This document shows positions 13,114-21,983 of a stretch of 64,000 nt of DNA, one piece after another. The stretch's first letter is position 1; each line of letters opens with the position of its first letter. The stretch is from assembly GCA_020444275.1 (NCBI GenBank), contig JAHLLG010000002.1:310001-374000 (forward strand), written 5' to 3'. Both the position numbers and the translations under genes were made by a program. Source of the DNA: Bacteroidota bacterium. Lineage in GTDB: Bacteria > Bacteroidota > Bacteroidia > Bacteroidales > UBA12077. The notes under the pieces are model-generated. The model saw only the letters and a program-made list of their open reading frames with translations. It had not been told where the DNA came from and made no database searches.

Positions 13114-13145
13114 GTTGTACAATGTAAAACAATGTTGTATATTTG
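13114..13145 (+). promoter_or_regulatory. Promoter of the J-domain/RHH mini-operon with repeated AATGTTGTA box
   Basis: TTG at 13115-13117, a 20-bp spacer and TATATTTG at 13138-13145 fit the Bacteroidota -33/-7 pattern. AATGTTGTA occurs twice (13111 and 13131), and the first copy overlaps the small palindrome TTGTACAA, which looks like an operator. The -7 box covers the TTG codon at 13143, so translation should begin at the ATG at 13164. Confidence 0.6.
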
Positions 13146-13163
13146 AAACAAAAAAATTTAGAT

Positions 13164-13511
13164 ATGACTTATTTTGCTGATGTAAAAGAAAGAACCGACC
13201 TAAAATCTATGTACCGAAGATTGTCGTTTTTATATCATCCGGATAAGGGAGGTCAGGTTGAGAAAATGCAGGCCATTAATGCCGAGTATAACATGTTAAA
13301 AAATACCTTTGGTAAGTTCCCTCAGGATTTAAGAAAGGTGAGAGTTGGTAATTTTGTGTATGTGAATAAATCACTTAGTGTGGTTACCAAAGTTGAGCAG
13401 AAGCTGTTTTATGCTAAATCATTTAAAACGGGAAGGGTTGCCATGTTTGCCAAAGATACCGGGTATGGTGTTTTTAATTTTAAATTGAGGGCTTATGCAA
13501 GAGGGTACTAG
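13164..13511 (+). CDS. Orphan J-domain protein, function unknown
   Basis: The 115-residue product begins with a short J domain: helix-rich MTYFADVKERTDLKSMYRRL, then the HPD tripeptide at residues 25-27 (LYHPDKGG). HPD is the motif that stimulates Hsp70 ATPase. No Gly/Phe region, zinc fingers or client-binding domain follow. Residues 60-115 form a basic beta-rich domain (VGNFVYVNKSLSVV..., KSFKTGRVAMF) that I do not recognise. I prefer ATG 13164 over the upstream TTG at 13143 because a promoter box covers that codon. The stop overlaps the start of an RHH-like gene by 17 bp, so the two are translationally coupled. It could recruit DnaK to a DNA-bound or plasmid-type complex; this is inference. 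Confidence 0.75.
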   Translation: MTYFADVKERTDLKSMYRRLSFLYHPDKGGQVEKMQAINAEYNMLKNTFGKFPQDLRKVRVGNFVYVNKSLSVVTKVEQKLFYAKSFKTGRVAMFAKDTGYGVFNFKLRAYARGY

Positions 13512-13686: not shown

Positions 13687-13741
13687 GTTAGGAAGGGGGA
13701 GTAGATTTTTTTCATAGATTGCACAATTAGTTTTCAAAAAG

Positions 13742-13766
13742 CCCGAATGAAGATTCGGGTTTTTTA
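13742..13766 (+). terminator. Rho-independent terminator after the mini-operon
   Basis: CCCGAAT (13742-13748) pairs with ATTCGGG (13753-13759) around a GAAG loop and is followed by seven T. The stem resembles the terminator at 13065, but the two are on either side of the mini-operon and not in a repeat unit. Confidence 0.9.
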
Positions 13767-13876
13767 TTACCCGAAACCCGAAAGAGTATATCCCAGTTTT
13801 CTTTCGTAGATAAAAATGTCCCTTCTAACCAAATAAAACCTGCAACCATTGATTTTATTTTCATTCAGCACAGCTG

Positions 13877-14656
13877 ATGTTTAATATTGTCACAGATATT
13901 GAATTAAACATTGGTGCTATGAGTGTTATAGAATTTATTATACAAGGTTTCAAACCCATTTCGTTATCCGAAATGGACAGTGTAAAGCTGATGAATAGGA
14001 TAGATACAAAGTATGTATGTTCTATAGAGTCGGTTCCGCTTCTTCTGTTTGATATCATCCATTCATATAAAGTATTGGAGATTAGCGAAAACAGAATTAT
14101 GCCTTATGAAACAATTTATTACGATACGTCTGATTTTAAAATGTTTATCGATCATCAGAATGGTAAACTTAACAGATATAAGGTTCGGCATAGAGAATAT
14201 CTTAATACCGGAGTGAACTTCCTGGAAATAAAATTTAAAAATAATAAAGGAAGAACTATCAAGAGCAGAATTAGTTCAGATTGTCAATTGAGTAGAGCTG
14301 AAAGTGAATTTATTTCAAAAAGTTCACCATTTGTTGCCAGTGATCTCGAACCTAAATTATGGAACAGTTTCAAACGTATTACGTTGGTTGGTGAGGATGA
14401 AAGAATTACCATTGATTTTACACTTTGCTTTAATAATGGGAACGGGCATAGTGCTGAGTATTATAACCTGGGTGTGATAGAGGTTAAGCAATCAAAATAC
14501 AACTCTTCATCGGTCATAAAACAAACACTTCGTAATCACAGAATTTTTCCTTCGGGTTTTAGCAAATATTGTATTGGAACGGCCTCACTTTATAATCATT
14601 TAAAAATCAACCGATTTAAATCTAAATTATTGTCAATTAATAAACTAACAGCTTAA
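13877..14656 (+). CDS. VTC-domain protein, polyphosphate polymerase-like
   Basis: A 259-residue cytoplasmic protein of the VTC/CYTH-like tunnel fold. Motifs in order are MNRIDTKYV (nucleotide-binding Lys and Arg), the YETIYYDT strand, NRYKVRHREY (tunnel basic residues), NFLEIKFKNNKGRTIKSR (metal-binding Glu plus basic residues) and LGVIEVKQSK near the end. In yeast Vtc4 this fold makes polyphosphate from ATP. Bacterial copies beside DUF4956 and CotH genes are recurrent, but their product is less certain. It is the first gene of the cluster, and the DUF4956 gene begins 4 bp after its stop. ATG at 13919 is an alternative start that would still keep the whole fold. Confidence 0.85.
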   Translation: MFNIVTDIELNIGAMSVIEFIIQGFKPISLSEMDSVKLMNRIDTKYVCSIESVPLLLFDIIHSYKVLEISENRIMPYETIYYDTSDFKMFIDHQNGKLNRYKVRHREYLNTGVNFLEIKFKNNKGRTIKSRISSDCQLSRAESEFISKSSPFVASDLEPKLWNSFKRITLVGEDERITIDFTLCFNNGNGHSAEYYNLGVIEVKQSKYNSSSVIKQTLRNHRIFPSGFSKYCIGTASLYNHLKINRFKSKLLSINKLTA

Positions 14657-14660
14657 TAAC

Positions 14661-15365
14661 ATGAACACCTTACATTCAATACTATGTTTCTTTCCAAGTG
14701 TGCTACTTGACATTGAACTTTTCAATATCGATTTAATCGATCTTGAAGATTTTACGGAACTTATTCTTCGTTTTTTATTTAATCTTCTGGTTTGTTTTAT
14801 TATTGTTAAAACACTGTACTATAATACGACACGAAGAAAAGATTATCTATTCACCTATTTTTTAATAAGTACCGTTATTTTTCTCTTATGCTTTTTGCTT
14901 GAGAATGTGAAGCTTGAACTTGGGTTTGCACTTGGGCTTTTTGCAATCTTTGGAATAATCCGCTACCGAACTACTACTATTCCAATTAAAGAAATGACCT
15001 ACCTCTTTATAATTATTGGTTTATCGGTTATTAATGCATTAGCCAATAAAAAAGTTAGCTATGCTGAACTGATTTTTACCAATATGATTATAGTGGCAAT
15101 AGTATATGCGTTAGAAAGGGTTTGGTTATTAAAACATGAAGGAAGTAAACAAATAATTTACGAAAAGATTGATTTGATAAAACCTGAAAATTACAACCTG
15201 CTTATAGAAGATTTAAAACTACGAACAGGTTTGGAAATTAATCGTGCCGAAGTGGGTAAACTCAATTTTCTAAGAGATACTGCCGAAATTAAAATATACT
15301 ATTTCAACGGGAATAGCAGTTGCGATGAAAATGAGGAAGTAAACGATCAGGAAATGATATCATAA
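14661..15365 (+). CDS. DUF4956 membrane protein
   Basis: A 234-residue protein with four hydrophobic segments in the first 150 residues (for example LLVCFIIVKTLYY, FLISTVIFLLCFLLE, LGFALGLFAIFGIIRYR, LFIIIGLSVINAL). A cytoplasmic tail of about 80 residues follows. The signature FAIFGIIRYRTTTIPIKEMTYLF is typical of DUF4956. These proteins commonly neighbour VTC and CotH genes. A role as the membrane partner of the VTC enzyme, perhaps moving or coupling the product across the membrane, is inferred from that linkage. It starts 4 bp after the VTC gene and is surely co-translated. Confidence 0.85.
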   Translation: MNTLHSILCFFPSVLLDIELFNIDLIDLEDFTELILRFLFNLLVCFIIVKTLYYNTTRRKDYLFTYFLISTVIFLLCFLLENVKLELGFALGLFAIFGIIRYRTTTIPIKEMTYLFIIIGLSVINALANKKVSYAELIFTNMIIVAIVYALERVWLLKHEGSKQIIYEKIDLIKPENYNLLIEDLKLRTGLEINRAEVGKLNFLRDTAEIKIYYFNGNSSCDENEEVNDQEMIS

Positions 15366-15390
15366 TTCTTTTTATTTAAATTTTTTTGAA

Positions 15391-16077
15391 ATGAAAAATA
15401 TAAAAAAATCAATATCCATAGTAATTTTTGTGGGTGCTATTTTATCCACCTTTGCACAGGAAACCGTTGTAACAAGCGATTTAGAACAATGGACTTCGTT
15501 AAGTATATCAAAAAAGATAAATAAACACTGGAAACTGTCATTAGATCAAGAGTTTAGGTTAAATCACAATGCGTCAGAATTTAATATATACTTTACAGAC
15601 CTGGGAGTAGATTATAAAATCAACAAATACTTCAGTTTAGGGGCTAATTATAGATTTTATCAGAATAAAAACAACGATAACGTTTTTGTAACCCAACATC
15701 GTTGGAGTACCGATTTAAAGTATAAACAGGATATTGGTCGGTTTGAATTCGGATATCGTTTACGCTTTCAGAACAAGGATGAAGATTTTTATACATCTGA
15801 TACCGGGAATAATTTATACAACTTACGCAATAAATTTTCGGCAGAATATAATATAAGGAATTGCAAGATTGATCCTTTTTTTAGTACTGAGTTATATCGT
15901 ACTATAAATAGCACTACTGATACTGAATTAAGTAAGCTTCGCTGGACATTAGGGTTAGAGTACTCAATTAAAAAAATAGGTGATATCGAATTGTATTACC
16001 GAATGGATAATGAGCTTAATCTTTCCTACGATAAAACAACACATATTATCGGGGTGGGCTACAAATACTCATTTTAA
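15391..16077 (+). CDS. DUF2490 outer membrane beta-barrel protein
   Basis: A 228-residue exported protein with a cleavable signal (cut after STFAQ). It is a run of amphipathic strands ending in an aromatic C terminus, GVGYKYSF, as in outer membrane barrels. The early DLEQWTSLSISKKINKHWKLSLDQEFR stretch fits DUF2490. It lies 25 bp after DUF4956 and 16 bp before the first CotH gene, so the cluster spans cytoplasm, inner membrane, outer membrane and surface. Function is unknown. Confidence 0.8.
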   Translation: MKNIKKSISIVIFVGAILSTFAQETVVTSDLEQWTSLSISKKINKHWKLSLDQEFRLNHNASEFNIYFTDLGVDYKINKYFSLGANYRFYQNKNNDNVFVTQHRWSTDLKYKQDIGRFEFGYRLRFQNKDEDFYTSDTGNNLYNLRNKFSAEYNIRNCKIDPFFSTELYRTINSTTDTELSKLRWTLGLEYSIKKIGDIELYYRMDNELNLSYDKTTHIIGVGYKYSF

Positions 16078-16093
16078 TTAAGGAGATATAGCT

Positions 16094-17500
16094 ATGAAAA
16101 AGCAGTTGATCATACTTACGGAAATAATAATACTCTTTTTTATGCTTTTTAATTCAACTTCATGCTACAAAGAAGAAGTGATAACTGATTCGGGAATTAC
16201 GCCAGGTGAGGGATTGGAAGATTGGACAGCTGAAACTCATTCAAATGCAGCTAGCCCAAACTATGATATTGTATTTCCGCAGGATAAGGTGAACAAACTG
16301 GAAATTGTTATTAATGCCGACGATTGGACTGCCATGCTAAACGACTTAACCGAGAATATTGGCGAATTTGGAACTGATGCAACTCCGGTTCAGGGAGGAG
16401 ACTGGGATCAGTATACGCCACTTTTTGTGCCTGCATTTATATTTTTTAACAACATAGAGTGGTATCATGTGGGAGTTCGTTTTAAGGGGAATTCAAGTTT
16501 GCGTTCATCCTGGCAATCGGGATGTATGAAACTTGCTTTTCGTTTTGATTTTGATGAGTTCGAAGATGATTATCCTGAAATTAACGATCAGCGCTTTTAC
16601 GGTTTTCAAAAGTTATCATTTGCTAATAATTATAAAGATGAATCGTTTTTACACGAAAAAATTGCAGCAGATATTTTCAGGGATGCAGGATTAAAAGCTC
16701 CACAAACGGCTTATTACAGACTGTATGTCGATTATGGAAATGGTCCGGTTTACTTCGGATTATATACAGCAGTTGAAATAGTGGAAGATACCATACTCGA
16801 AGATCAATTCGGTAGTGGCAGTGGGAATTGTTATAAGCCCGAGTATGATGCAGCAACATTTGCTTATGGAACGTTTAATACTACCGAGTTTTATTTGAAA
16901 ACCAACGAAGGTGCACCTGATTACTCCGATGTGGAAGCATTGTATACTATTCTACACTCCAATAGCCGGTTTACTAATGTTGAGCAATGGAAAGCAGACC
17001 TGGAATCGGTATTCGATACGGATAATTTCTTATTGTGGCTTGCGACCAACACAGTTATTCAAAACTGGGATACATATGGTTTGATGAGTCATAATTACTA
17101 TTTATATCACAACCCTTTCTCTGATAAGCTGGTTTGGATTCCCTGGGATAATAATGGTGCTCTTTTCGAAGGAAGAAGAACGCCATTATCCTTTTCAATG
17201 AATGAAGTTAGTAATCAGTGGCCTTTAATCAGATACTTAATCGATTTGCCTGAATATAAAAACATGTATGAGAATTATTTATTAGCAGTTGTTGAAGGTG
17301 CTTTTGAACCATCAAAAATGCAAGAAAAGTATCAGTATTATCATGATTTAATTTACAATTATGTAATTGGACCAGAAGGAGAACAACCAGGTTACACTTT
17401 TTTAGGTTCCGATTCTGAGTTTACTGATGCACTAAATTATCAGTTAAATCATGTTGTCAATCGGCACGATGAGGTATTAAATTATTTATCAATAAAATAA
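16094..17500 (+). CDS. CotH kinase family lipoprotein (copy 1)
   Basis: A 468-residue protein with a lipoprotein signal (LFNSTSCYKEE). The CotH domain spans about residues 50-460, with the GVRFKGNSSLR loop, the LSFANNYKDESFLHEKIA segment, YFGLYTAVEIVED, and the acidic catalytic region LYHNPFSDKLVWIPWDNN. CotH proteins are atypical kinases that phosphorylate Ser in spore-coat or surface proteins. This Bacteroidota copy would act outside the cytoplasmic membrane, where the source of ATP is an open question. An unusually good Shine-Dalgarno (AAGGAGATATA) precedes the ATG. It is a close paralogue of the gene at 18164. Confidence 0.9.
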   Translation: MKKQLIILTEIIILFFMLFNSTSCYKEEVITDSGITPGEGLEDWTAETHSNAASPNYDIVFPQDKVNKLEIVINADDWTAMLNDLTENIGEFGTDATPVQGGDWDQYTPLFVPAFIFFNNIEWYHVGVRFKGNSSLRSSWQSGCMKLAFRFDFDEFEDDYPEINDQRFYGFQKLSFANNYKDESFLHEKIAADIFRDAGLKAPQTAYYRLYVDYGNGPVYFGLYTAVEIVEDTILEDQFGSGSGNCYKPEYDAATFAYGTFNTTEFYLKTNEGAPDYSDVEALYTILHSNSRFTNVEQWKADLESVFDTDNFLLWLATNTVIQNWDTYGLMSHNYYLYHNPFSDKLVWIPWDNNGALFEGRRTPLSFSMNEVSNQWPLIRYLIDLPEYKNMYENYLLAVVEGAFEPSKMQEKYQYYHDLIYNYVIGPEGEQPGYTFLGSDSEFTDALNYQLNHVVNRHDEVLNYLSIK

Positions 17501-17517
17501 CTAAAAAAACAATTATT

Positions 17518-18093
17518 ATGAAAACAAAGATTATGGTAAAGATTTTATTTATTGCTGTGTTAGGTCTTTTAATAAATACGGCAAGTGCACAAAACAGAAG
17601 AGCTAAGCATCATAAGGCGCATACAAGGACTTGGAAAAGAAGTCACAGACATGCTCCAAACCATCGATATGCAAAGCTTCCTAAATGGGGTAAATCATAT
17701 GCATCTATACATAAAAAAGCGCATAGAATTGCCCACAGAGGATTAAGTTATTATTATCGTTCAGGTATTTATTATAAAAAAGCGAGGAATGCATATGTTA
17801 TAGCAAAAGCTCCTATTGGAGTGCGAGTTACTACACTACCTCGAAAGCACCATAAGTTTATGGTTAGAGGAAAAAAATATTACTACTACTATGGAACATA
17901 CTACGTAAAAGTTGATAACAGCAATGAGTATGAAACGGTAAAGCCACCAATCGGAGCAAAAGTTGATGCTTTGCCCGAAGGTTATACACAGTTTCAGGAT
18001 AACGGAGTGAATTATTTCGAGTTTGAAGGAACAGTGTATAAGGAAGTTAATGTTGAAAATGAAATCCTTTACGAAGTTATTAAGAACGACTAA
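17518..18093 (+). CDS. Highly basic secreted protein, DUF6515-like
   Basis: A 191-residue protein with a signal peptide (cut after TASAQ). Residues 25-80 are extremely basic, with alternating Arg, Lys and His (AKHHKAHTRTWKRSHRHAPN). Two related halves follow, each with a Tyr-rich YYYR/YYYYYGTYY strand pair and an (A/P)PIGxxVxxLP motif. That pattern resembles DUF6515. It lies between two CotH kinase genes, 17 bp after the first. Because known CotH substrates are very basic Ser/Lys/Arg-rich proteins, it is a candidate substrate, which is inference only. It may be surface-bound through charge. Confidence 0.7.
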   Translation: MKTKIMVKILFIAVLGLLINTASAQNRRAKHHKAHTRTWKRSHRHAPNHRYAKLPKWGKSYASIHKKAHRIAHRGLSYYYRSGIYYKKARNAYVIAKAPIGVRVTTLPRKHHKFMVRGKKYYYYYGTYYVKVDNSNEYETVKPPIGAKVDALPEGYTQFQDNGVNYFEFEGTVYKEVNVENEILYEVIKND

Positions 18094-18163
18094 TTAAAAT
18101 AGAATGGTTTAATTGCCTTTAACTGGATTTCAAATCAATTTTTAAACAATTAATTAGTTACAT

Positions 18164-19627
18164 ATGAAAATAAAATATCTTATAAAGATGAATATAATCT
18201 TATCGATTCTGGTAACCATTAGCGTTATAGCAACTTCGTGTTATAAAGAAGAAATAAATGCAGAAGCTGATGCGATAGTTCCCGGAACAGGTTTAATGGA
18301 TTGGAGCTCTGAAACTCACTCAGGCGAAGCAATACCGAATTATGATATGGTTTTTTCGCAAGATGCTGTAAACAGAATTGATATTGTCATTTCTGCAGAG
18401 AACTGGAAATTCATGTTAGACGATTTAACAGAGAACCTGGGAGAATTTGGTTCAGGTGGAGATTTTCCGCCACCTCCTATGATGAATAGAAGTTTTAATA
18501 AATCTTTTATCCCAGGACCACCTCCGGGAGGTGAGATGGATTTTACTCCGGTATATGCCGAAGTATCAGTATTTTTTAATGATATGGAATGGTATCATGT
18601 TGGAATCCGTTTTAAGGGGAATTCCAGCTTGCGATCAGCCTGGCAGGAAGGAATTATGAAATTGGCCTTCCGCTTTGATTTTGATGAATTTGAAGATGAG
18701 TATCCGGAAATTAAAAATCAGCGTTTTTATGGATTTCAGAAACTTTCGTTTTCTAATAATTTTCATGATGAATCATTCTTGCACGAAAAGGTGGCTGCCG
18801 ATATTTTCAGGGATGCAGGTTTGAAAGCACCACAAACAGCATATTACAGATTATATGTTGATTATGGCGAAGGACCGGTTTATTTTGGCCTCTATACAGC
18901 AGTTGAAATTGTTGAGGATACCATGCTCGAAGATCAATTTGGTAGCGACGATGGGAATTGCTACAAACCAGAAGGTAACGCAGCAACATTTGCGCTTGGA
19001 ACATTTAATGCCGAAGAGTTTGATCTGAAAACCAACGAAGATTATCCCGATTATACTGATCTTGAAACATTATATGACATTTTGCATTCGAATACCAGAA
19101 TAACAAATACAGAAGAGTGGAAATCCGATTTAGAATCGGTATTTGATGTAGATCATTTTATGCATTGGTTGGCTGTAAATACGGTAATTCAAAACTGGGA
19201 TACGTATGGTATAATGAACCATAATTACTACTTATATCATAATCCGTATACCGATAAGCTGGTTTGGATTCCCTGGGATAATAATGAAGCTTTAACTGAT
19301 GAATTAAGAGAAACATTAAGTTTATCGATGATGCAGGTAACCAGCGATTGGCCCTTGATCAGATATTTAATAGATGTTCCGGAATACGAGACTATTTATG
19401 ACGAATATTTAAATTCCACAATTAACGAGGCATTTGAGCCGTCAAAAATGAAAGAGGCTTATTCATATTATCATAACTTGATTTCCGATTATGTAATTGG
19501 TGCAGATGGAGAGCAAATGGGATATACTTTTTTACAATCCGGAGCCAATTTTACAAGTGCATTAACCGAGCAGTATAATCACGTTGATGAAAGGTATAGT
19601 GCAGTTCAGGAATACTTATCAAAATAA
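18164..19627 (+). CDS. CotH kinase family lipoprotein (copy 2)
   Basis: A 487-residue paralogue of the 16094 protein with a lipoprotein signal (SVIATSCYKEE). The central region is nearly identical between the two (FYGFQKLSF, DESFLHEK, YFGLYTAVEIVEDT, LVWIPWDNN), pointing to a fairly recent duplication. It differs by a Pro/Gly-rich insert near residues 102-124 (FPPPPMMNRS and IPGPPPGGEM) where copy 1 has a short acidic loop. The insert could contact a partner or the cell wall. The kinase residues look intact. Gaps of 70 bp before and 28 bp after suggest it remains in the operon. Confidence 0.9.
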   Translation: MKIKYLIKMNIILSILVTISVIATSCYKEEINAEADAIVPGTGLMDWSSETHSGEAIPNYDMVFSQDAVNRIDIVISAENWKFMLDDLTENLGEFGSGGDFPPPPMMNRSFNKSFIPGPPPGGEMDFTPVYAEVSVFFNDMEWYHVGIRFKGNSSLRSAWQEGIMKLAFRFDFDEFEDEYPEIKNQRFYGFQKLSFSNNFHDESFLHEKVAADIFRDAGLKAPQTAYYRLYVDYGEGPVYFGLYTAVEIVEDTMLEDQFGSDDGNCYKPEGNAATFALGTFNAEEFDLKTNEDYPDYTDLETLYDILHSNTRITNTEEWKSDLESVFDVDHFMHWLAVNTVIQNWDTYGIMNHNYYLYHNPYTDKLVWIPWDNNEALTDELRETLSLSMMQVTSDWPLIRYLIDVPEYETIYDEYLNSTINEAFEPSKMKEAYSYYHNLISDYVIGADGEQMGYTFLQSGANFTSALTEQYNHVDERYSAVQEYLSK

Positions 19628-19655
19628 ACATGTATAAATTAAAAAGATTACAACT

Positions 19656-20063
19656 ATGAAAACAAAATTTAGATTTTTAGCAACAACAATGTTGGTACTG
19701 TTTACCATGAATTGTATAGCTCAGCCGGAACAAGGTCAGCGTCCTTCCATTGAGCAAAGAACAACCAGAACATTAAGATTAATTGAACAAAAAATTGAAA
19801 TGGATTCATTACAAAAGCAAGTTGTAAGCAATGCTTTTATGAGTTTCTTCGAAACGGTTGATGAATTGGTTCAACCTGGACAAAAACCTAAAAGAGAATT
19901 AATTGAAGAACAAGAGCTAATAAGAGATGAGAAAATCAAACAAGTACTCACAACAGCTCAATATGAAGATTATCTGAGAATGAGCTGCAGATTGCGGCCA
20001 AATCCTCGCGAACAGCAGGACGGGAATAGAAAACCACGACACAGAAAGGAGGTATTCGAATAG
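19656..20063 (+). CDS. Small secreted helical protein, Spy/CpxP-like
   Basis: A 135-residue protein with a signal peptide (cut near NCIAQ). It is helical and charged (EQRTTRTLRLIEQKIEMDS, LIEEQELIRDEKIKQVLT) with a basic tail. Length, helix layout and the LTTAQYEDYL motif recall Spy/CpxP periplasmic chaperone-like proteins, which often sense envelope stress. It lies between the second CotH gene and a LytS-type kinase, so it could modulate that sensor. No exact family is recognised. Confidence 0.55.
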   Translation: MKTKFRFLATTMLVLFTMNCIAQPEQGQRPSIEQRTTRTLRLIEQKIEMDSLQKQVVSNAFMSFFETVDELVQPGQKPKRELIEEQELIRDEKIKQVLTTAQYEDYLRMSCRLRPNPREQQDGNRKPRHRKEVFE

Positions 20064-20131
20064 ACCACAATGTATTACTATTAAAAAAGATTTATCTTTA
20101 TAAAAAACTTACGTGTTTAACAGGTTTTACC

Positions 20132-21277
20132 ATGCAGTTTAAAGCTACACAAAAAGTACCCGAAAACGCAGTTTATTTAATTATCTGGTTAGTAATTTTT
20201 ATTATGCCGGTATTAATTGCTACCTCTAATACCGGCAGATTAGATAAGCAGGTTTTTGTCGGGTGGGCACGAATGGTCCCATTTGTTCTTATTTTTATCA
20301 TTAATACAGTTTGGTTGCTTCCCGAATTATTATTTAAGGGAAAAACAGGAGCATATCTTTTGGCAGTGGTTGTTCTTAGTTTTTTATTGGTATTGGTTTG
20401 GGAATATATGATGCCAATAATCAGAGAATTTCTAATCAGTGATCAGGTACAACGTCCAAATTTAAGGCCTTTACGTCCCGGCTTGGAACGGCCTGATTTT
20501 GGAAACCAATTGCCTCCCAGACCAAATCAGCGAGTTGCAGGTGATAATTTACCTGTGCGACCCAGAAATCATGTGTTAAGTATCGTAAATCAGATGGTTA
20601 TTGCGTGGTTGGTAGTTGGGTTTAATACTGCATTAAAAGTTACGAATAAGTGGTTTAAAGATGAGCAAAAGAAGAAAGAGTTGGAAAAAGAAAGTTTACG
20701 TTCTGAGCTGGCATTTTTGCAAAATCAGATTAGTCCTCACTTTTTCATGAATACATTGAATAATATTCATGCGCAAATAGATATAGATACAAAACAAGCA
20801 CAAAGCTCCATTGTAACTTTATCTAAAATGATGAGATACTTGTTATACGAATCGGAGAAGGGTAAAACAACACTTAAAAAAGAGATAGAGTTTCTAAAAA
20901 GTTATGTTGATTTAATGAAATTACGTGTTGATGAAGATGTTGATATTGATCTTAATATCAAAATTCAGGATGAGGATATCCGATTACATCCTTTGCTATT
21001 TATTTCCTTTGTTGAAAATGCATTTAAGCATGGAATCAGTTATCATGAAAAATCGTTTATTCAAATAGAACTCAGACAAGATTTGGATTCAATTCTATTT
21101 ACCTGTGAGAATAGTTTATCTGTGCAGAATAAAATAACAAACCCTTATTCCGGGGTTGGGTTAGAAAATATTAAAAAACGACTCAGTTTGTTATATAATA
21201 ACAATTACAAATTAAATATAGCTGAGAAAGAGTCGAGTTTCGAGGTTTACTTAAAAATTCCTGCTCATGCAAATTAA
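20132..21277 (+). CDS. LytS-type sensor histidine kinase
   Basis: A 381-residue inner membrane kinase of the His_kinase (PF06580) class. Hydrophobic segments occur at about 14-32, 47-67 and 72-92, then an Arg/Pro-rich external loop (about 108-148) and another helix near 150-168. The phospho-acceptor His is in FLQNQISPHFFMNTLNNI. The ATP site is FVENAFKHGI with the G box GVGLENIKKRL. The basic Pro-rich loop resembles the tail of the preceding secreted protein and the insert of CotH copy 2. It overlaps the LytTR gene by 11 bp, giving a translationally coupled two-component pair. Confidence 0.92.
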   Translation: MQFKATQKVPENAVYLIIWLVIFIMPVLIATSNTGRLDKQVFVGWARMVPFVLIFIINTVWLLPELLFKGKTGAYLLAVVVLSFLLVLVWEYMMPIIREFLISDQVQRPNLRPLRPGLERPDFGNQLPPRPNQRVAGDNLPVRPRNHVLSIVNQMVIAWLVVGFNTALKVTNKWFKDEQKKKELEKESLRSELAFLQNQISPHFFMNTLNNIHAQIDIDTKQAQSSIVTLSKMMRYLLYESEKGKTTLKKEIEFLKSYVDLMKLRVDEDVDIDLNIKIQDEDIRLHPLLFISFVENAFKHGISYHEKSFIQIELRQDLDSILFTCENSLSVQNKITNPYSGVGLENIKKRLSLLYNNNYKLNIAEKESSFEVYLKIPAHAN

Positions 21278-21983
21278 ATGTATTGCCATAGACGATGAAC
21301 CATTAGCCTTAAAGCAAATTTCAGGCTATATCAGTAAAACACCTTTCTTAGAACTGGTTGCTGGTTGTAAAAGTGCATTTGATGCTATGGTAGTGCTTGA
21401 AAATAATGAGGTTCATTTAATGTTTGTTGATATTCAAATGCCTGATCTTACGGGGATTGATTTTGTAAAATCGTTGAACAAAGAGCAAAAGATCATATTT
21501 ACTACGGCTTACGAAGAATATGCACTGGAAGGGTTTAAGGTTGAGGCGCTAGATTATATTTTAAAACCATTTGGTTACGAAGAGTTTCTAAAATCTGCTA
21601 CTAAAGCAAAAGCACATTTTGAACTACTTGAGAAAGCAGCTACATCAAATCGAGTAAATAATGAAGATTACCTATTTGTTAAAGCTGATTACAAAATCCA
21701 GCGCATTAACTTAACGGATATTGTTTACATTGAAAGCATGCGTGAATATGTGCAAATTGTTTTAAAAGATTCAAAACCGGTCATGACGTTGATGAGCCTT
21801 AAATCGCTGGAAGAGAAATTGCCCAAAAAGCATTTTATGCGGGTTCATCGCTCGTTTATTGTGAACCTAAACAAAATAAAAACAGTTGAGCGTAGTAGAA
21901 TTATTTTTGAAAAGAAGTATGTTCCTGTTAGCGAACAGTATAGGGATCAGTTTCAGGAATTCTTAGGCAAAAGTTTTATTTAA
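21267..21983 (+). CDS. LytTR-family response regulator
   Basis: A 238-residue regulator. The receiver has IDDEPLA, the phospho-acceptor Asp in HLMFVDIQMPDLTG, and the Lys of DYILKPF. The LytTR DNA-binding domain follows at about 140-238 (YIESMREYVQIVL, FMRVHRSFIVNLNKI). It is coupled to the upstream kinase by an 11-bp overlap. It probably regulates the VTC/CotH cluster, since both genes sit at its end, but no pair of LytTR direct repeats could be recognised with confidence. Confidence 0.92.
   Translation: MQIKCIAIDDEPLALKQISGYISKTPFLELVAGCKSAFDAMVVLENNEVHLMFVDIQMPDLTGIDFVKSLNKEQKIIFTTAYEEYALEGFKVEALDYILKPFGYEEFLKSATKAKAHFELLEKAATSNRVNNEDYLFVKADYKIQRINLTDIVYIESMREYVQIVLKDSKPVMTLMSLKSLEEKLPKKHFMRVHRSFIVNLNKIKTVERSRIIFEKKYVPVSEQYRDQFQEFLGKSFI

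What the first reader, a model, noticed from the sequence alone, without database searches (positions are those of the whole stretch)
13877..21983. VTC/DUF4956/DUF2490/CotH cluster with LytS-LytTR: possible surface phosphorylation or polyphosphate system
A polyphosphate-polymerase-like enzyme, a membrane protein, an outer membrane barrel, two CotH-kinase lipoproteins, a basic secreted protein, a Spy-like protein and a two-component pair are arranged in one direction with small gaps. VTC, DUF4956 and CotH recur together in several phyla, but their joint function is not settled. A polymer made in the cytoplasm could supply phosphate outside the cell, where ATP is absent, for CotH-dependent modification.
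Basis: inference. Interest (0 to 1): 0.72.

Follow-up and report, generated by a model that had tools for sequence, protein, structure and literature searches.

The report
Possible polyphosphate-export and surface-kinase cluster
A row of bacterial genes joins a yeast-type polyphosphate-making enzyme and its membrane partner to an outer-membrane channel and kinases on the cell surface, so it may build a phosphate polymer, send it outside and use it there; what the set does has not been tested.

Summary
The gene row is real (13877-21983, nine co-directional genes): VTC, DUF4956, DUF2490 barrel, CotH, DUF6515, CotH, Spy-like, PF06580 histidine kinase, LytTR regulator. VTC-DUF4956 is a near-invariant, often translationally coupled pair across Bacteroidota and also in other phyla. 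Bacterial VTC keeps the residues whose mutation kills yeast Vtc4 (R264, R266, E426). The pair mostly comes with an envelope-crossing partner, either DUF2490 or a HlyD-type adaptor, never both in one run (53 of 61). CotH co-occurs with VTC by genome (55 of 57 versus 80 of 338; family-stratified p 1.5e-7). The genome's second VTC-DUF4956 pair carries a far CotH relative that Pfam does not recognise. PelG is absent, so this is not the Pel context described in print; PPK1 is present, so VTC is not a PPK substitute. Best reading: a polyphosphate synthesis-and-export machine loading the cell surface, where CotH kinases work. That polyphosphate is CotH's phosphate donor is untested. Verdict: known association, new and better-defined variant; interesting, testable, not proven.

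The parts
13877..14656 (+). VTC-domain protein, predicted cytoplasmic polyphosphate polymerase (true start probably 13919)
   Evidence: PF09359 3.1e-27; profile hits Vtc4 structures at 5.4e-20; K45, R104, R106, K119, K129, R167, E202, K230 invariant in 30 sequences and aligned to Vtc4 K200, R264, R266, K281, K294, R361, E426, K458
14661..15365 (+). DUF4956 membrane protein: five helices and a C-terminal ferredoxin-like domain; predicted translocation partner
   Evidence: PF16316 3.6e-53; AlphaFold model pLDDT 85.7; R101 and R103 invariant in 31 sequences; DUF4956 follows VTC directly for 166 of 175 VTC genes
15391..16077 (+). DUF2490 outer-membrane beta-barrel, candidate outer-membrane exit
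   Evidence: PF10677 8.6e-29, weaker Porin_4 1.4e-4; directly behind DUF4956 in 74 cases, 58 with overlap or gap of 10 nt or less
16094..17500 (+). CotH-family kinase, surface lipoprotein
   Evidence: PF08757 2.3e-61; B. cereus CotH 5jd9 7.8e-15; lipobox STSC-YKEE; catalytic-loop and metal-site Asp kept
17518..18093 (+). DUF6515 secreted protein with a Lys/Arg/His-rich N-terminal half, candidate CotH substrate or polyanion binder
   Evidence: PF20125 2e-31; similarly basic N-terminus in L072 and L079, next to VTC-CotH loci
18164..19627 (+). second CotH-family kinase, surface lipoprotein
   Evidence: PF08757 2.5e-62; 68% identical to the first; lipobox ATSC-YKEE
19656..20063 (+). Spy-like secreted protein
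   Evidence: no Pfam hit; relatives in a matching place in L072, L073, L079, L157
20132..21277 (+). sensor histidine kinase (PF06580) with an Arg/Pro-rich stretch before its last membrane helix
   Evidence: similar Arg/Pro/Gln-rich stretch in L072, L073, L074, L079
21267..21983 (+). response regulator with LytTR DNA-binding domain
   Evidence: PF00072 4.1e-18, PF04397 9e-23
13741..13770 (.). terminator-like hairpin with T run ahead of the operon
   Evidence: sequence; hairpin also listed on the minus strand (13754-13775 and 13742-13759)

Best explanation
A trans-envelope phosphate-polymer system. VTC polymerises phosphate from ATP in the cytoplasm (inferred from shared catalytic residues). The chain is handed to the DUF4956 membrane protein, which takes the place of the membrane half of the yeast VTC complex (inferred). 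It then crosses the outer envelope through the DUF2490 barrel here, or with a HlyD-type adaptor in other lineages (inferred from the exclusive, tightly coupled gene order). On the surface it meets the CotH lipoprotein kinases and basic proteins such as DUF6515: it acts as a surface polyanion, and CotH phosphorylates surface proteins or glycans of the same layer. The HK-LytTR pair with the Spy-like protein is read as envelope-stress control of the operon. Shown: gene order, residue conservation, co-occurrence, surface signals on CotH. Inferred: polymer identity, export and every activity.
For: VTC profile finds Vtc4 (5.4e-20) ahead of Vtc2 (3.9e-13). R264/R266/E426, which PMC9911596 mutated to inactivate Vtc4 (passages), map to invariant R104/R106/E202. 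VTC-DUF4956: 166 of 175 VTC genes, 136 of these 166 with overlap or gap of 10 nt or less. Phylum sample: DUF4956 in the run of 60 of 61 called VTC loci; six-frame search found both genes in the 3 regions where gene calling failed (L088, L114, L120), so in 63 of 63 regions held (of 66 places listed). Envelope partner in 53 of 61: HlyD-like 37, DUF2490 16, both 0; HlyD-like identity from Pfam and NCBIfam. CotH link: 55 of 57 versus 80 of 338 genomes, p 3e-27; stratified over 15 families (185 of 395 genomes, counts read by hand) odds ratio 30, p 1.5e-7; within one genus 5 of 6 versus 0 of 4, p 0.048. The kinase label needs 33 changes on the VTC tree, so the link recurs. PPK1 is present in this genome and in 55 of 57 VTC genomes: VTC does something other than bulk storage. 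Phosphate context in other phyla: DUF4956-VTC-phosphate transporter-phytase-like in Nitratireductor, DUF4956-VTC-phytase-like in Aminobacter and Shinella, acid phosphatase and phosphonate transport beside it in Deinococcus QL22, a PF07396 phosphate-selective porin behind DUF4956 in Pseudoalteromonas.
Against: No activity is known for any bacterial VTC in the passages I read. In Streptococcus intermedius, deleting the VTC gene (SIR_1593) gave no reported change in aggregation or Pel, unlike the DUF4956 and CotH genes (PMC12345266, passages). The DUF4956 model matches no solved channel clearly; best Z 6.1. DUF4956 also occurs without a VTC found beside it (L161-L163, L171, L178, L193, L196, L206, L214, L218; L161 and L196 start at or near the DUF4956 gene, so their upstream side is cut). 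CotH is absent from the run in 41 of 61 loci. Gram-positive hosts of the set have no outer membrane. In the Pseudoalteromonas locus the VTC is only a C-terminal fragment.
Confidence: 0.5

Rival explanations
1. Surface phosphorylation or glycan-modification system in which CotH uses a nucleotide donor, and VTC-DUF4956 supplies or senses phosphate metabolism or regulates the surface polymer without exporting polyphosphate.
For: B. subtilis CotH phosphorylates CotB with ATP and needs the protein CotG for efficiency (PMC7821199, passages); CotG's basic repeats are recalled and would resemble the basic DUF6515 between the two cotH genes. Deletion of the DUF4956 gene raised and of cotH lowered Pel in S. 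intermedius, the VTC deletion was not reported to do either (PMC12345266, passages). The aromatic residue before the metal-site Asp (PWD) is kept as W/Y/F in 74 of 78 aligned CotHs; that it stacks on adenine in 5JDA is recalled, and the second recalled stacking residue (Tyr142) is Lys in the window protein (alignment).
Against: No ATP source outside the outer membrane is known; catalytic polymerase residues are invariant, which a mere sensor would not need; envelope-crossing partners are coupled to VTC-DUF4956 more often than to CotH.
Confidence: 0.22
2. Polyphosphate storage or phosphate homeostasis: VTC-DUF4956 makes polyphosphate that stays in the cell or periplasm, and CotH is carried along as a co-regulated surface protein.
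For: Phosphate transporter and phytase-like neighbours in Alphaproteobacteria; CotH absent from the run in 41 of 61 loci.
Against: PPK1 is already present in 55 of 57 VTC genomes. DUF2490 or HlyD-like genes sit in the run of 53 of 61 loci. The CotH association holds within families.
Confidence: 0.15
3. VTC and DUF4956 serve an exopolysaccharide, as proposed for Pel operons: DUF4956/VTC tune synthesis and CotH modifies the matrix.
For: Next to pelDEADAFG in streptococci and clostridia, with a variant in bifidobacteria (PMC7112168, passages); mutant phenotypes in PMC12345266; carbohydrate-binding Cthe_2159-type protein behind DUF2490 in L059 and L132; ASST near CotH in 11 loci.
Against: No PelG in this genome and no Pel gene in the window cluster; Deinococcus taeanensis has CotH-VTC-DUF4956 between unrelated genes.
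Confidence: 0.13

Closest known systems
Eukaryotic VTC complex (Vtc1/Vtc3/Vtc4), coupled polyphosphate synthesis and translocation
   Same: Tunnel domain with the same catalytic residues; tied to a membrane partner.
   Different: No SPX domain and no fused membrane helices; the membrane partner is DUF4956, for which no relation to the Vtc membrane domain was found; further envelope genes and surface kinases are added.
cotH-PPP-DUF4956-DUF4832 accessory genes of Gram-positive pel operons (PMC7112168, PMC12345266; passages)
   Same: VTC, DUF4956 and CotH together.
   Different: No PelG; DUF2490 barrel, two CotH lipoproteins, DUF6515 and a two-component pair instead. PMC12345266 says the three-gene synteny was not found outside the Pel locus; it is found here and in Deinococcus taeanensis.
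B. subtilis cotB-cotG-cotH phosphorylation module (PMC7821199, passages)
   Same: CotH kinase encoded beside a candidate basic substrate or helper protein.
   Different: Spore coat, kinase shown with ATP; here surface lipoproteins with VTC-DUF4956.
BT3498-BT3499 (DUF4956, DUF2490) of Bacteroides thetaiotaomicron
   Same: Same DUF4956-DUF2490 pair, listed in an iron-stimulon table (PMC10434189, one passage; value 0.175 in the second column, which I read as not significant).
   Different: No CotH named there.

Membership tests
VTC tunnel domain (PF09359), polyphosphate polymerase | Profile match over the curated cut-off | tested here: met
   96.1 bits against 23
VTC tunnel domain (PF09359), polyphosphate polymerase | Catalytic basic residues and Glu of Vtc4 | tested here: met
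   R264, R266, E426 and others kept
VTC tunnel domain (PF09359), polyphosphate polymerase | Polyphosphate synthesis from ATP | not testable with these tools
   needs enzyme assay
Eukaryotic VTC complex | SPX domain and fused C-terminal membrane domain in the VTC protein | tested here: not met
   Pfam found VTC alone, residues 40-239 of 259
CotH kinase family (PF08757) | Profile match | tested here: met
   208.5 and 211.7 bits against 23.8
CotH kinase family (PF08757) | Two catalytic/metal-site Asp residues | tested here: met
   NWD and PWD in the window protein; Asp in 74 of 76 and 78 of 78 aligned non-gap sequences (92 sequences given, gaps set aside)
CotH kinase family (PF08757) | Kinase activity and donor | not testable with these tools
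   needs enzyme assay
CotH family: 352-aa protein of the second VTC-DUF4956 locus (L036) | Profile match | tested here: inconclusive
   L036 itself has no Pfam hit; its homologue L206 (30% over 319 aa, E 3e-45) hits CotH at 3.1e-7, over cut-off; L214, L040, L048 do not; hhalign E 0.0013, probability 18
Pel-operon accessory genes | Linkage to pelDEADAFG | tested here: not met
   PelG absent from the genome (assembly 98.9% complete)
LytS-type sensor | LytS membrane sensor domain | tested here: inconclusive
   only PF06580 and a weak GHKL match found
Spy/CpxP family | Profile match | tested here: inconclusive
   no Pfam hit at E 0.1
Membrane channel (DUF4956) | Fold of a known channel | tested here: inconclusive
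   no Foldseek match below E 0.001; best VIA Z 6.1

The most novel reading that the evidence does not exclude
Exported polyphosphate is the phosphate (energy) currency of the bacterial surface: VTC-DUF4956 with DUF2490 or a HlyD-type adaptor delivers it across the envelope, and extracytoplasmic CotH-type kinases, perhaps also the ASST-like transferases beside them, use it in place of ATP to phosphorylate surface proteins or glycans.
Probability: 0.12. Interest if true: 0.9.

Novelty: new variant of a known kind. Interest (0 to 1): 0.62.

Why it matters
How secreted bacterial kinases get a phosphate donor outside the cell, and what bacterial VTC proteins are for in cells that already have PPK1, are both open as far as I could find. 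If this reading is right, a single operon links cytoplasmic polyphosphate synthesis, export and surface phosphorylation, and it gives a compact genetic system in which to test it. Even without the donor idea, a dedicated polyphosphate export machine of Gram-negative bacteria would be new to me and to the passages I read.

Tried and rejected
AlphaFold of the far CotH relative (L206 with L214) failed: pLDDT 35 with a two-row alignment, so no fold search was run on it. Fold search of DUF4956 gave nothing above the noise level; a missing match does not show a new fold. phmmer of the single VTC protein against the PDB found nothing; the profile did. The DUF4956 profile found no solved structure. 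NCBIfam had no usable family for the seven window proteins tested. The promoter scan was at chance level, 40 found against 43.8 expected. A VTC in a 778-aa open frame in L114 looked like a fusion; I read it as a calling artefact in GC-rich DNA, since an ordinary DUF4956 follows directly in six-frame search. PF07396 porin as a general partner: rejected, one adjacent case only; two more copies lie elsewhere in VTC loci (L224, L133). CotH-anchored loci L143-L155 (13) have no DUF4956, but I had picked them away from VTC, so this only shows that CotH can stand alone. Rfam, RNA-model, phage and viral or metagenome contig searches were not used. Of 48 VTC places in relatives 45 were fetched and of 66 in the phylum sample 62 were fetched and one is the window; the rest were fragments, a contig-end copy or copies already held. 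The stratified test leaves out 210 of 395 genomes (families without VTC or with no VTC-negative/positive listing, or genomes not listed by handle). The VTC tree is a FastTree with long-branch warnings. The iterated CotH and KinB profiles took in each other's members, so their E-values are inflated and I rely on Pfam and BLASTP instead. Papers: passages only were read; the CotH structure paper (10.1073/pnas.1605917113) is not held, so its residue roles (adenine-stacking Trp/Tyr, second Asp) are recalled. The surface-export meaning of CYKEE after the lipobox is recalled too.
Full report
What is there. Nine co-directional genes lie at 13877-21983: VTC, DUF4956, DUF2490, CotH, DUF6515, CotH, a Spy-like protein, a PF06580 histidine kinase and a LytTR response regulator. 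Gaps are short. The genome has a second VTC-DUF4956 pair elsewhere but CotH by Pfam only in the window.

The enzyme. The VTC profile built from 30 relatives finds the Vtc4 structures at 5.4e-20 and Vtc2 at 3.9e-13. Eighteen columns are invariant in those 30 sequences. Mapped through the printed alignment, they include the equivalents of Vtc4 K200, R264, R266, K281, K294, R361, E426 and K458. PMC9911596 (passages) inactivated Vtc4 with R264A/R266A/E426N. So the sequence predicts an active polymerase; no assay of this protein exists that I know of.

The membrane partner. DUF4956 directly follows VTC on the same strand for 166 of 175 VTC genes, with overlap or a gap of at most 10 nt in 136 of the 166. 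In the phylum sample 60 of 61 called VTC loci have it in the run, and the three regions where gene calling had failed hold both genes in six-frame search. A partial VTC in a relative (L080) is the one locus of the relatives where none was found. The pair is also present in all 8 plasmid loci I fetched (of 11 records matched), from Pseudomonadota, Deinococcota and Actinomycetota, one of them with a VTC fragment. AlphaFold gives five membrane helices and a C-terminal domain of ferredoxin-like make-up (pLDDT 85.7); R101 and R103 are invariant in 31 divergent sequences. By the positive-inside rule (my inference) that pair sits on the cytoplasmic face. No solved fold matches well. DUF4956 can also stand without an adjacent VTC.

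The envelope partners. In the phylum sample 16 of 61 runs contain DUF2490 and 37 a HlyD-type adaptor; none contains both. The adaptor hits HlyD_D23 at 4.8e-6, below Pfam's cut-off, and NCBIfam periplasmic-adaptor families at about 1e-11, also below their cut-offs. On a VTC tree of 169 rows (FastTree, rough) the HlyD type needs 2 changes and DUF2490 20. DUF4956-DUF2490 (58 of 74) and DUF4956-HlyD (13 of 13) are tightly coupled. This is the strongest anatomical hint that the product leaves the cell.

The kinases. In the 395-genome phylum sample VTC occurs in 57 genomes and CotH in 135. 55 of the 57 VTC genomes have CotH, against 80 of 338 without VTC. Stratified by family (15 families, 185 genomes, counts read by hand) the odds ratio is 30, p 1.5e-7; in one genus it is 5 of 6 against 0 of 4. 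The exceptions are G296, whose locus L132 has a Cthe_2159-type protein behind DUF2490 and an HK-LytTR pair after it, and G363. All 43 CotHs scanned from these loci match Pfam CotH, and 27 have a type IX secretion tail; the window's two are lipoproteins. CotH therefore probably works outside the outer membrane. The catalytic Asp residues are kept. On the VTC tree the kinase label changes at least 33 times, so the pairing has been lost and gained repeatedly. Yet only 20 of 61 phylum-sample runs contain CotH.

A far CotH relative. The genome's second locus reads VTC-DUF4956-352 aa secreted protein (L036). That protein has no Pfam or NCBIfam hit but its family is in the run of 14 of 45 loci of relatives. 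It aligns with a CotH profile over the N-lobe (hhalign E 0.0013, probability 18). Its homologue L206 (30% identity, E 3e-45) hits Pfam CotH at 3.1e-7, over the cut-off; the four other members tested, L036 among them, do not. It is best read as a far relative of CotH, which would make a secreted kinase a feature of both VTC loci of this genome.

Other partners. An arylsulfotransferase-like protein (PF05935) occurs in 11 VTC/DUF4956 loci, each with CotH nearby. A family of lipoproteins with prealbumin-like repeats has 53 members in these runs, 37 with a lipobox. In Alphaproteobacteria DUF4956-VTC is followed by a phosphate transporter and a phytase-like protein, or by the latter alone. In Deinococcus taeanensis the order is CotH-VTC-DUF4956. 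These support a phosphate product and a general link with CotH.

Why not plain storage or Pel. PPK1 is present here and in 55 of 57 VTC genomes, so bulk polyphosphate does not need VTC. PelG is absent. PMC12345266 (passages) reports that the three-gene synteny was not found outside the Pel locus; the window and Deinococcus taeanensis are such cases. The same paper is also the main evidence against a simple model: deleting the VTC gene of S. intermedius had no reported effect on aggregation or Pel, while DUF4956 and CotH deletions did.

What is in print. Searches of the held library for DUF4956, CotH with VTC or polyphosphate, DUF2490, bacterial VTC and CotH kinases found the Pel papers, a C. 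perfringens locus list (PMC2879425, passages) and a B. thetaiotaomicron table entry (PMC10434189). None of the passages read proposes polyphosphate export through DUF4956 and an outer-membrane partner. Subscription papers are mostly not held, so this is not a claim that nobody has.

Verdict. Observation confirmed. The direct donor reading is kept as the novel case at 0.12.

Noticed in passing
L036:8642-11129 (G000:C7, same genome): Second VTC-DUF4956 pair followed by a 352-aa secreted protein without Pfam hit that is a far relative of CotH.
   Followed up: yes
L039, L076, L091, L105, L122, L126, L135, L185, L186, L205, L235: Arylsulfotransferase-like protein (PF05935) near CotH in VTC/DUF4956 loci; role unknown, might be another surface group transferase.
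   Followed up: partly
L236:5309-7687 (Pseudoalteromonas plasmid): DUF4956 followed by a phosphate-selective porin (PF07396, 2.4e-47); VTC is only a C-terminal fragment there, with a lamin-tail protein before it.
   Followed up: partly
L161-L163, L193, L206, L214: DUF4956 without an adjacent VTC; in L206 and L214 it is followed directly by the far CotH relative.
   Followed up: partly
window 20390-20590: Arg/Pro-rich stretch in the histidine kinase, and Arg/Pro-rich tails in the Spy-like proteins; could sense a polyanion, or mean nothing.
   Followed up: no
window 13143-13511: TTG-start ORF with a weak DnaJ match and a weak ProQ-C-like match, upstream of the operon and separated by a terminator-like hairpin.
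   Followed up: no
L046:7517-8721 and many other loci: Lipoprotein with prealbumin-like repeats and a 138-aa secreted repeat protein just upstream of VTC in many Bacteroidota loci.
   Followed up: partly
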